NCBI GenBank assembly: GCA_946494335.1
Contig: CAMMBV010000004.1
Span: 35,010 to 99,009, forward strand
Length of the DNA: 64,000 bases
Source of the DNA: an uncultured Ruminococcus sp.
GTDB lineage: Bacteria; Bacillota; Clostridia; Lachnospirales; Lachnospiraceae
Reading direction: 5' to 3'
The position numbers and the translations under genes are program-made. Shown here in pieces: positions 19,719 to 22,402 of this stretch (position 1 is the first letter of the stretch; each line of letters opens with the position of its first letter). Under the pieces are notes generated by a model. The model worked only from the letters and a program-made list of their open reading frames with translations. It was not told where the DNA came from and made no database searches.

Positions 19719-19750
19719 CGTTTTGTGCTTGTATTTTATTATTTTGTGCT
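19719..19750 (+). promoter_or_regulatory. direct-repeat operator copy 1, upstream of AraC gene
   Basis: TTGTGCT at 19723-19729 and 19744-19750 (21 bp period). Confidence 0.7.
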
Positions 19751-19842
19751 ACTGTTAAGAAAAGATTTCGTGTTACCCTTGTAATAAGAAAGAATTTTTG
19801 TGATAATTTTACTGACAGAAATTTTTGGCAGGAGGTGGCACT

Positions 19843-20802
19843 ATGGCGCAAAAAACAGCAGAAACCGGGAGAGAAAAGTATCCTTACAAAAAATTTAAAG
19901 TATATGATTCCACGCCTGTTTCCGTGGAAATGTGGAACGATCAGGAGTTTGTGGAAATGCACTGCCACCGGTTCTATGAATTTACCGTGATCACAAAGGG
20001 TTCCTGCATCCATAATTACCGGGGTGTGCAGGTGCCGCTGATTCCGGGGGATATTTTCATGATTGAGCCGAATCAGCCCCATGGGTATGAAATTCAGGCT
20101 CAGGTGAGCATTATAAACTGCCAGTTTTATCCGGAGCAGCTGAGCAATGAAAACAACCGTCTGCTGCAAAGCGCCTGGGTATCCAGCAAAAGTGAGGATA
20201 TCAAAAAGCAGTGGGATGAGCTTTTGCAGTATGTCAGTCTGGAGGAAACTGGAATCGACAGCAATGTGCGTCAGGCCAATTTGAATACACAGGGAATCAT
20301 CCATCTGAACAGTGAAGATCTCGCTTATGTGGAATCGCTTCTGAACGAGATGGCCCGGGAACAAAAGGAGCAGGAAGTGAATCTGGAATATGCCAAATCG
20401 GCGTATCTTCAGTTGATTCTGGTAAAGCTAAGCCGGGTACAGCGCAGGAGAAATGAACAAATCAATCATCATTCCAATCAGAAAAAGGATATGATTTACG
20501 ACGCGCTGGTCTATATAGAGGAGCATCTGGATGAGAAGATAGATTTTTCCGGCCTGGCAGAGAGCAGTTTTATGAGCCCCAGCTATTTTCGTTCCATTTT
20601 TAAAGATGTGACGGGGCTGACACCGGTGGATTATCTGAACCGGATGCGAATTGTAAAATCACTGGAATACCTGGAGCGGGAGAAATCAACTATCGCGGAA
20701 GCCGCCGCAAAAGTGGGAATATTTGATTCCAATTATTACTCACGGATGTTTAAGAAGGTAATGGGATATTCGCCGAAATATTTTAAAAGTATACGAAACT
20801 GA
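19843..20802 (+). CDS. AraC-family transcriptional regulator (cupin + HTH)
   Basis: HCHRFYEFTVITKGSCIHNYRG cupin; FSGLAESSFMSPSYFRSIFKDVTGLTPVDYLNRMRI...FDSNYYSRMFKKVMGYSPKYF HTH; ATG 19843 has AGGAGGTGG RBS. Confidence 0.94.
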   Translation: MAQKTAETGREKYPYKKFKVYDSTPVSVEMWNDQEFVEMHCHRFYEFTVITKGSCIHNYRGVQVPLIPGDIFMIEPNQPHGYEIQAQVSIINCQFYPEQLSNENNRLLQSAWVSSKSEDIKKQWDELLQYVSLEETGIDSNVRQANLNTQGIIHLNSEDLAYVESLLNEMAREQKEQEVNLEYAKSAYLQLILVKLSRVQRRRNEQINHHSNQKKDMIYDALVYIEEHLDEKIDFSGLAESSFMSPSYFRSIFKDVTGLTPVDYLNRMRIVKSLEYLEREKSTIAEAAAKVGIFDSNYYSRMFKKVMGYSPKYFKSIRN

Positions 20803-20803
20803 G

Positions 20804-20840
20804 AAAACGGGGCGTGCTGCTGCACGCTCCGTTTTGTTTG
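20804..20840 (+). terminator. terminator of AraC gene
   Basis: AAAACGGGGCGTGC-TGCT-GCACGCTCCGTTTTGTTT. Confidence 0.85.
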
Positions 20841-20874
20841 CATCAGGCGTGGCGGATAAATTTTAATTTGTTTC

Positions 20875-20934
20875 GTTTTGTGCTAGTAGTGTGTCAAATT
20901 GTGCTCACGGATTTATAAAAATGTGTGCTATACT
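20875..20934 (+). promoter_or_regulatory. direct-repeat operator copy 2 plus -10 upstream of substrate-binding protein gene
   Basis: TTGTGCT at 20878-20884 and 20899-20905; TATACT at 20929-20934; no good -35. Confidence 0.78.
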
Positions 20935-21136
20935 CATTGCAAGAAAGGACGAAATGCACATAACACACAAAAAAATAAAGCATAAATTATACATGTTGCA
21001 CATAAAATGGGCATGCTGTTGATAAAACAAAGCGATTGAAATAAAATCACAAAATACTTGTTTTGGAAGAAAAAGTATTCTCAATATGTGCGGGAATGTA
21101 TGAGAGAAATATGTGCAGACAAAACAGTAGGAGGTA

Positions 21137-22198
21137 ATGAAAATGAAGAAGAGAATTTTGGCCAGCTTACTTGCAGGATGTATGGTACTGGGTTCCCTGA
21201 CAGCCTGCGGCGGAGGAGACGATGCCGGCACAGACGCATCAGCAGAGACTTCTGAAACATCTGAAGCAGATGCGGCGGAAGAAGAAGGCGGCGATTCCGG
21301 TGATATGAAAGTAACCATGATCATATCGGACCGCGACGAGTGGCTCAGTGAAATGGAATCAGGAGCGCTGGATGCGGCGGAAGAACTGGGAATTGATCTG
21401 ACCACACAGGATGCGCAGAAGGATACCAGCAGACTGCTTCAGTTTATTGAAACAGCCAGAAATGACGGACAGAAAGCCGTTATCATCAACATGGTAGACC
21501 CGGAGACAGGTCAGGAATGTATCGATGCGGCCGGCGATATGAAAGTGGTATTTGTCAACAGATATCCTACCGATCTGAGTCTTTTAAATGAGAATGCGGT
21601 ATATGTAGGTTCAGATGAAAATGAAGCAGGTGATCTTCAGGCGGAATACCTGGCGGAATACTTTGAAGAGCAGGGCAAGACAGATATCAAATACATTCTG
21701 CTCAGCGGAAACTACGGACTGACAGCCACCACACTGAGAACGGATTCCGCGCTGAATGGTCTGAAAGACAGAGGCATCAACGCAGAAGAAGCGACCGCTC
21801 CGCTGGTTGCTGATTATAACCGGGCGGAAGCGCAGGATATAATTGCTCCGCTTCTGGGAACGACAGAGTTTGACTGTATCATTTCCAACAATGACGCCAT
21901 GGCTCTTGGAGCTGTTGAGGCAATGATCGATGCAGGTATGGATCCGGCAAGCGTTCCGATCGTAGGAATCGATGCTTCCACAGACGGACGTAAATCTATC
22001 GCAGAAGGACAGATGGCCATGAGCGCCTTCCAGAACGCAATCGGACAGGGTTCCACTGCAGTTCTGGCAGCCAAAAACCTGATTGAAGGCAATGCAGCCA
22101 ATGAAGGAAGCGAATTTGATGTGGATCCTGAGAATGAGTACATTACCTGGGTGCCCTTTGAGCGTGTCGATGCATCAAATGTAGCGGACTATAACTAA
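21137..22198 (+). CDS. substrate-binding lipoprotein (periplasmic binding protein type 1 / sugar ABC type), no permease or ATPase adjacent
   Basis: Lipoprotein signal MKKRILASLLAGCMVLGSLTAC; IISNNDAMALGAVEAMIDAGMDPASVPIVGIDAS. Confidence 0.92.
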   Translation: MKMKKRILASLLAGCMVLGSLTACGGGDDAGTDASAETSETSEADAAEEEGGDSGDMKVTMIISDRDEWLSEMESGALDAAEELGIDLTTQDAQKDTSRLLQFIETARNDGQKAVIINMVDPETGQECIDAAGDMKVVFVNRYPTDLSLLNENAVYVGSDENEAGDLQAEYLAEYFEEQGKTDIKYILLSGNYGLTATTLRTDSALNGLKDRGINAEEATAPLVADYNRAEAQDIIAPLLGTTEFDCIISNNDAMALGAVEAMIDAGMDPASVPIVGIDASTDGRKSIAEGQMAMSAFQNAIGQGSTAVLAAKNLIEGNAANEGSEFDVDPENEYITWVPFERVDASNVADYN

Positions 22199-22218
22199 TC
22201 AGAATTTGAAAGTGGGTG

Positions 22219-22250
22219 CAGGCGCCGGCCAACAGCCGGCGCCTGTTAGT
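22219..22250 (+). terminator. hairpin after substrate-binding protein gene
   Basis: CAGGCGCCGGC / GCCGGCGCCTG 11 bp stem, weak T tract. Confidence 0.65.
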
Positions 22251-22273
22251 TTAAGAGAAGTATGGGGAAAAGA

Positions 22274-22306
22274 AGCCCTGCGATAACGGTATGCTGTCGC
22301 AGGGCT
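22274..22306 (+). terminator. second hairpin in the same intergenic region
   Basis: AGCCCTGCGA / TCGCAGGGCT 10 bp stem. Confidence 0.5.
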
Positions 22307-22342
22307 CTCTCTGACTCTGAATGAATGAAAATCATGATTTGC

Positions 22343-22402
22343 GTTTTGTGCTAGTATTGTGTTGTATTGTGCTCACGTATGAGAAGAATATTATGCTATA
22401 CT
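22343..22402 (+). promoter_or_regulatory. direct-repeat operator copy 3 plus -10 upstream of URO-D gene
   Basis: TTGTGCT at 22346-22352 and 22367-22373; TATACT at 22397-22402; same spacing as copy 2. Confidence 0.78.

What the first reader, a model, noticed from the sequence alone, without database searches (positions are those of the whole stretch)
19719..22402. Three-copy direct-repeat operator defines a local AraC regulon of orphan binding protein plus URO-D enzyme
Seen directly: CGTTTTGTGCTAGTAGTGTGTCAAATTGTGCTCACG (20875) and CGTTTTGTGCTAGTATTGTGTTGTATTGTGCTCACG (22343) are near-identical, and CGTTTTGTGCTTGTATTTTATTATTTTGTGCT (19719) is a third copy. Each has two TTGTGCT half-sites exactly 21 bp apart (two helical turns). 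In copies 2 and 3 a TATACT -10 lies at exactly the same distance (24 bp from the last base of the second half-site to the first base of the -10), and the usual -35 hexamer is missing, so the second half-site abuts the -35 slot. That is the arrangement expected for class II AraC-type activators. Inference: the AraC protein at 19843-20802 binds all three, autoregulating and switching on the lipoprotein (21137) and the URO-D enzyme (22546).
Basis: partly seen in the sequence, partly recalled or inferred. Interest (0 to 1): 0.82.

Follow-up and report, generated by a model that had tools for sequence, protein, structure and literature searches.

The report
AraC regulon marked by tandem operators
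A gut-type Lachnospiraceae bacterium carries a small gene switch in which one AraC-family regulator very probably turns on its own gene, a sugar-binding lipoprotein and an uncharacterised URO-D-like enzyme through three copies of a paired DNA site placed exactly like those of the classic arabinose and XylS switches; the layout is well supported by conservation in sister species but is of a familiar type.

Summary
TTGTGCT-N14-TTGTGCT occurs three times in the window (19723, 20878, 22346), nowhere else in the 3.26 Mb genome, and never in shuffles. In 299 family genomes the full pattern occurs only in this genome and its one sampled congener, where three sites sit at the orthologous araC, binding-protein and URO-D promoters. 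Half-sites are 100% identical between species while the 20-bp spacer is 53% identical. Two congeners add a fourth site at a second transporter/URO-D operon. More distant AraC relatives (35-55% identity) keep the same geometry, some with altered half-site letters. Corrections: two coordinates are off by one; the lipoprotein is 'orphan' because its transporter genes, present in sister species, are missing here; the araC site is not kept in one congener; activation rather than repression, and araC autoactivation, are inferred. The architecture matches AraC I1-I2 and XylS-Pm, so this is a new member of a known kind.

The parts
19843..20802 (+). AraC/XylS-family regulator, 319 aa: N-terminal cupin sensor (RhaR/AraC/BgaR-like fold), C-terminal double HTH
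   Evidence: Pfam HTH_18, HTH_AraC, AraC_binding; model matches RhaR, BgaR and AraC sensor domains and the AraC DNA-binding domain
19723..19750 (+). operator 1 (araC promoter): half-sites 19723-19729 and 19744-19750
   Evidence: conserved upstream of araC in G201 and G300 although the upstream neighbour gene differs
19771..19779 (+). extended -10 of operator 1 (TGTTACCCT), 20 bp after half-site 2
   Evidence: TGATAACCT / TGTTAACCT in G201 / G300
20878..20905 (+). operator 2 (binding-protein promoter): half-sites 20878-20884 and 20899-20905
20926..20934 (+). extended -10 of operator 2 (TGCTATACT)
   Evidence: 9/9 identical in G201 and G300
21137..22198 (+). sugar-binding lipoprotein, Peripla_BP_4, MglB-like (CUT2 type); no transporter genes follow here
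   Evidence: the G201/G300 orthologues are followed by ATPase and permease genes
22346..22373 (+). operator 3 (URO-D promoter): half-sites 22346-22352 and 22367-22373
22394..22402 (+). extended -10 of operator 3 (TGCTATACT)
   Evidence: 9/9 identical in G201 and G300
22512..22518 (+). lone downstream half-site TTGTGCT in the URO-D leader, 145 bp after half-site 2 (146 bp in G201 and G300); possible auxiliary site
22546..23763 (+). URO-D-superfamily enzyme, 405 aa, substrate unknown
   Evidence: Pfam URO-D 5e-15; fold matches uroporphyrinogen decarboxylases and methyltransferase 4ay7
20804..20835 (.). hairpin AAAACGGGGCGTGC-TGCT-GCACGCTCCGTTTT followed by T-rich sequence: likely terminator separating araC from operator 2
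   Evidence: read directly; minus-strand half called
22219..22245 (.). G+C-rich inverted repeat CAGGCGCCGGC-CAACA-GCCGGCGCCTG after the binding-protein gene: likely terminator before operator 3
   Evidence: read directly

Best explanation
The AraC protein encoded at 19843-20802 binds, probably as a dimer, to tandem 7-bp cores (TTGTGCT) set two helical turns apart at three separate promoters: its own, the sugar-binding lipoprotein's and the URO-D-like enzyme's. The promoters lack a usable -35 and rely on an extended -10 (TGnTAnnnT). The promoter-proximal half-site ends where the -35 slot begins (about -42 to -36; the distal half-site about -63 to -57), so bound AraC can stand in for the -35 and recruit RNA polymerase (class II activation), presumably when a small ligand binds its cupin domain. 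The result is a local autoregulated uptake/catabolism regulon. Shown by sequence and conservation: sites, geometry, confinement to the locus, co-conservation with this AraC. Inferred: direct binding, activation, ligand dependence, a sugar or sugar-like ligand.
For: Only three exact sites in 3.26 Mb, all within 2.7 kb of this AraC. The full pattern is found in 2 of 299 family genomes, three sites each, reversed-pattern control 0. 4/4 congeneric genomes have both the AraC orthologue (84-86%) and a site. In G201 and G300 the sites lie at the orthologous araC, binding-protein and URO-D promoters. Six window-versus-congener comparisons: half-sites 84/84 bases identical, extended -10 51/54, 20-bp spacer 64/120, 14-bp middle 59/84. 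A fourth site (TTGTGCT-N14-ATGTGCT, TAnACT in register) precedes a second binding-protein/ABC/URO-D operon in G201 and G300. A looser family pattern gave 14 hits in the four genomes, control 0; ten are this motif, and the other four are a TTGTCC-type variant, one per genome, lying within about 130 bp of an AraC paralogue of 46-50% identity. Same geometry upstream of URO-D in G136 (AraC 55%) and of the CUT2-AraC operon in G081 (AraC 35%). Geometry agrees with XylS/Pm direct repeats (PMC5481539) and AraC araI1-araI2 (PMC4760080).
Against: No binding or expression data. G299 has the AraC orthologue but no site at araC, which there follows the TauE gene closely. Copy 1 has a poor -10 (TACCCT), and a second promoter-like element (TTGTAA-N17-GATAAT, 19779-19807), conserved in sequence, could be the real araC promoter, so the sign of autoregulation is uncertain. 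G000 also encodes three other AraC paralogues of this subfamily that might cross-bind.
Confidence: 0.83

Rival explanations
1. The sites are bound by this AraC but act mainly in repression, at least at araC: AraC sitting against the promoter limits its own expression, possibly with a loop to the lone downstream half-site at 22512 in the URO-D leader.
For: A separate conserved promoter-like element lies downstream of the araC operator. The lone half-site 145-146 bp downstream is kept in three genomes although the leader has diverged. E. coli AraC itself loops araI1 with araO2 (PMC4760080).
Against: At lipoprotein and URO-D the half-site abuts the -35 slot of promoters with a strong extended -10 and no -35, the position of activators. 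The downstream half-site is single and found at one promoter only.
Confidence: 0.12
2. Another regulator, for example one of the three other AraC paralogues of this subfamily in the genome, is the true or a shared reader of these sites.
For: Paralogues of 42-49% identity are encoded at C10, C43 and C19, and at least one has a look-alike operator (TTGTCCA/GTGTCCT) next to it.
Against: All three sites flank this AraC and no other. Paralogue-linked sites have different letters, and recognition-helix segments differ between the groups (SPSYFR against S[VE]GYFR).
Confidence: 0.05
3. The three copies are recent duplications or chance repeats with no regulatory role.
For: Copies 2 and 3 are nearly identical over 36 bp.
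Against: Shuffles give none. Half-sites and -10 are fully or almost fully conserved in sister species while the bases between drift. Copies differ outside the half-sites, and the fixed register to the -10 recurs in distant relatives.
Confidence: 0.01

Closest known systems
E. coli AraC at araI1-araI2 (pBAD), class II activation
   Same: Direct-repeat half-sites, promoter-proximal one adjoining the -35 region, recruiting RNA polymerase (PMC4760080; the 21-bp spacing and the 4-bp overlap with the -35 are from general knowledge). Same domain order and fold class.
   Different: Different half-site sequence; extended -10 promoter without a -35; sites at three promoters including the regulator's; no demonstrated upstream O2-type loop or CRP site; ligand unknown.
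XylS at Pm (Pseudomonas TOL plasmid)
   Same: Two homologous direct repeats read by two HTHs per monomer, proximal monomer contacting RNA polymerase, site overlapping the polymerase site (PMC5481539 and reference titles therein).
   Different: XylS repeats are TGCA-N6-GGTA boxes; effector is a benzoate; no ABC transporter or URO-D targets.
MtlR at PmtlE (Pseudomonas fluorescens)
   Same: AraC/XylS-type sugar regulator with two similar 15-bp blocks (-72 to -58 and -50 to -36) upstream of the -35, a 22-bp offset (PMC4514859).
   Different: Sequence, host and 1-bp spacing difference; mannitol regulon.
RhaR/RhaS and BgaR sugar-sensing AraC regulators
   Same: N-terminal sensor-domain fold matches RhaR, BgaR and AraC; profile hit to RhaR regulatory domain.
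   Different: No equivalog cut-off met for any named regulator.

Membership tests
AraC/XylS transcription factor family | C-terminal domain with two HTH motifs | tested here: met
   HTH_18 5e-16 and HTH_AraC 1e-15, above gathering cut-offs
AraC/XylS transcription factor family | N-terminal cupin-like ligand/dimerisation domain | tested here: met
   AraC_binding 1.4e-11; fold match to RhaR, AraC and BgaR sensor domains
Named sugar regulators (RhaS, RhaR, AraC, etc.) | NCBIfam equivalog score above curated cut-off | tested here: not met
   Best RhaS 96 bits against a cut-off of 288
Class II AraC-type activated promoter | Two half-sites in direct orientation about two helical turns apart | tested here: met
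   21-bp offset in all three window sites and in all sites found in sister genomes
Class II AraC-type activated promoter | Proximal half-site overlapping or abutting the -35 slot, with a weak or absent -35 | tested here: met
   20 bp from half-site 2 to TGnTAnnnT in all copies; no sigma-70 hexamer pair called there
Class II AraC-type activated promoter | Regulator binds the site and increases transcription | not testable with these tools
   Needs EMSA/DAP-seq and expression assays
AraC-type DNA looping control | Distant additional half-site used for looping | tested here: inconclusive
   Lone TTGTGCT at 22512, 145-146 bp from half-site 2 in three genomes, URO-D promoter only
MtaA/CmuA corrinoid methyltransferase (for the URO-D enzyme) | NCBIfam score above cut-off | tested here: not met
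   25.6 bits against 235
MtaA/CmuA corrinoid methyltransferase (for the URO-D enzyme) | H-x-C...C zinc ligands | tested here: inconclusive
   Eleven homologues share invariant DTDG and DHQ and no invariant H-x-C; equivalence of positions judged by eye

The most novel reading that the evidence does not exclude
The regulator belongs to an expanded AraC subfamily in Lachnospiraceae, tied to CUT2 sugar transporters and URO-D-like enzymes, in which the promoter geometry is frozen (21-bp offset, 20 bp to TGnTAnnnT) while the half-site letters and the recognition helices change together (TTGTGCT with SPSYFR; TTGTCC and AAAGTCC with S[VE]GYFR). This would give a readable AraC specificity code and a simple way to predict regulons of an uncharacterised enzyme family.
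Probability: 0.35. Interest if true: 0.55.

Novelty: new member of a known kind. Interest (0 to 1): 0.4.

Why it matters
It assigns a specific operator and a testable regulon to an AraC-type regulator with no named equivalog, and links an uncharacterised URO-D-like enzyme to a sugar-type uptake system, which narrows the search for its substrate. Because the geometry persists in paralogues with different half-site letters, the family could be used to work out how AraC recognition helices choose DNA. The mechanism itself is textbook.

Tried and rejected
A mis-specified spacing (N12) gave nothing. The genome-contig scan with an AraC profile returned only distant AraC proteins and close relatives seem to be left out, so no named loci came from it. 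Candidate repeats in paralogue loci that failed: ACGGTCA (L044) is not found in L095, the locus of the orthologous paralogue in G300. The G235 hit of the wide pattern lies inside an open reading frame, and the G102 hit lies next to an AraC of only 21% identity; both treated as background against 1 control hit. A regulatory site upstream of the window's other URO-D-like gene (16519) and of TauE was looked for: no tandem site. No paper linking AraC regulators with URO-D genes of this type was found in the library. PDB sequence search with the URO-D profile gave no hit; only the fold search did. A G136 row was cut one base out of register; the correct register is.

Full report
OBSERVATION. The three repeats exist as described. 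Exact TTGTGCT-N14-TTGTGCT occurs at 19723-19750, 20878-20905 and 22346-22373, always on the plus strand, and in none of 100 dinucleotide shuffles. The distance to TATACT is identical in copies 2 and 3 as stated. In addition, copy 1 carries TGTTACCCT in exactly the same register, and all three have the TG of an extended -10, so every copy reads TTGTGCT-N14-TTGTGCT-N20-TGnTAnnnT.

CONFINEMENT TO THE LOCUS. In the 3.26 Mb genome these are the only exact matches. The two matches with one mismatch lie inside longer open reading frames. In 299 genomes drawn from the family the full pattern occurs six times: three here and three in the only congener sampled (G201); the reversed-pattern control is zero in both genomes. 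All four genomes of the genus have this AraC (84-86% identity between the window's and the others) and at least one exact site: three here, three in G201, three in G300, one in G299.

SAME PROMOTERS IN SISTER SPECIES. G201 and G300 carry the sites before araC, before the binding-protein gene (83% identical in G201) and before the URO-D gene (95% identical in G201). The araC site stays with araC although the gene upstream differs (TauE in the window, a second URO-D gene in G201/G300). Over six pairwise promoter comparisons the half-sites are 84/84 identical and the extended -10 51/54, whereas the 20-bp spacer is 64/120 and the 14-bp middle 59/84. This is the footprint expected of a selected binding site plus -10. 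G201 and G300 also have a fourth, slightly weaker site (TTGTGCT-N14-ATGTGCT with TAnACT in register) before a second binding-protein/ATPase/permease/URO-D operon next door. In G299 the single site precedes an internally deleted binding-protein gene followed by URO-D, and araC sits close behind TauE without a site of its own.

THE FAMILY AROUND IT. With fixed -10 register, direct repeats in intergenic DNA near AraC paralogues are enriched at offset 21 relative to neighbouring offsets. Real-looking cases: TTGTGCT/CTGTACT before URO-D in G136 (AraC 55%); TTGTCCA/GTGTCCT before a URO-D-like gene in G201 and in the window's own genome on contig C19 (AraC 46-50%); AAAGTCC twice before a CUT2 operon in G201/G300; ATGTCCA/TTGTGCT before the CUT2-AraC operon of G081 (AraC 35%). 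A degenerate pattern for this geometry gives 14 hits in the four congeners and no control hit: ten are the TTGTGCT motif described above and four are the TTGTCC type, one per genome, each beside an AraC paralogue of 46-50% identity. At family scale a one-mismatch pattern gives 10 hits against 1 control hit; eight belong to this AraC subfamily, one lies inside an open reading frame, and one lies near an unrelated AraC. The segment around the first recognition helix reads SPSYFR in the TTGTGCT group and SVGYFR or SEGYFR in the GTCC group: suggestive, few cases.

PROTEINS. The regulator has an AraC double-HTH domain and a cupin sensor domain whose predicted fold matches RhaR, BgaR and AraC; it reaches no equivalog cut-off. 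The lipoprotein is an MglB-like sugar-binding protein. It is alone here, but in G201 and G300 ATPase and permease genes follow it; the closest ATPase elsewhere in the window's genome is only 54% identical, so the partner genes look lost (or are missing from this 97%-complete assembly) and the protein may use one of 19 other transporters of the type (inference). The URO-D-like enzyme has the uroporphyrinogen decarboxylase/MtaA fold but no close named family; eleven homologues share invariant DTDG and DHQ and no invariant H-x-C.

MECHANISM. If transcription starts about 7 bp after the -10, the half-sites lie at about -63 to -57 and -42 to -36. That is the position of AraC at araI1-araI2 (PMC4760080) and of XylS at Pm (PMC5481539), and close to MtlR at PmtlE (PMC4514859). 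No sigma-70 -35/-10 pair is called at these registers, and hairpins that look like terminators precede operators 2 and 3, so three separate transcription units are likely. I conclude that AraC most likely binds each tandem site and replaces the missing -35 contact. Binding, activation and ligand are inferred. The araC promoter is the least certain: its -10 is poor, a second promoter-like element lies just downstream and is conserved in sequence, and G299 lacks the site. A lone TTGTGCT in the URO-D leader at 22512, kept at 145-146 bp in three genomes, may be an auxiliary site.

VERDICT. The system works like, and by sequence criteria belongs to, the AraC/XylS class II kind. It is a new regulon of a known kind; the more interesting lead is the fixed-geometry, changing-letters pattern across paralogues.

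Noticed in passing
window 21137-22198; L043:8812-11321: The binding protein's ATPase and permease genes, present in G201 and G300, are absent here: the 'orphan' state looks like gene loss with the regulon kept.
   Followed up: partly
L087:285-900 (G299 contig C28): In a congener the binding-protein gene has a large internal deletion, leaving the signal peptide and C-terminus between the operator and URO-D; could also be an assembly artefact.
   Followed up: no
window 22512-22518: Conserved lone half-site in the URO-D leader at 145-146 bp from the operator in three genomes; possible loop or auxiliary site.
   Followed up: partly
window 18853-18859: A lone TTGTGCT on the minus strand between the TIM-barrel and TauE genes; also present upstream of TauE in G299.
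   Followed up: no
window 19779-19807: Second promoter-like element of araC (TTGTAA-N17-GATAAT), conserved in sequence in G201 and G300.
   Followed up: partly
window 22546-23763: URO-D-like family with invariant DTDG and DHQ motifs and no invariant H-x-C; repeatedly found beside CUT2 sugar transporters and AraC genes in Lachnospiraceae; substrate unknown.
   Followed up: partly
window 16519-17847: 442-aa protein next to a LacI-type regulator and a xylose-isomerase-like TIM barrel matches no Pfam or NCBIfam model, yet has relatives of about 30-35% identity beside AraC paralogues in G201, G300 and elsewhere in this genome.
   Followed up: no
window 10534-10827 (-): Rfam 5_ureB_sRNA match (123 bits, gathering cut-off 40), antisense RNA family, probably within the urease cluster.
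   Followed up: no
G000, G201, G300 (whole genomes): About 19 CUT2-type ATPases in the window's genome and eight AraC paralogues in each of G201 and G300: strong expansion of this sugar-uptake/AraC system in the genus.
   Followed up: no
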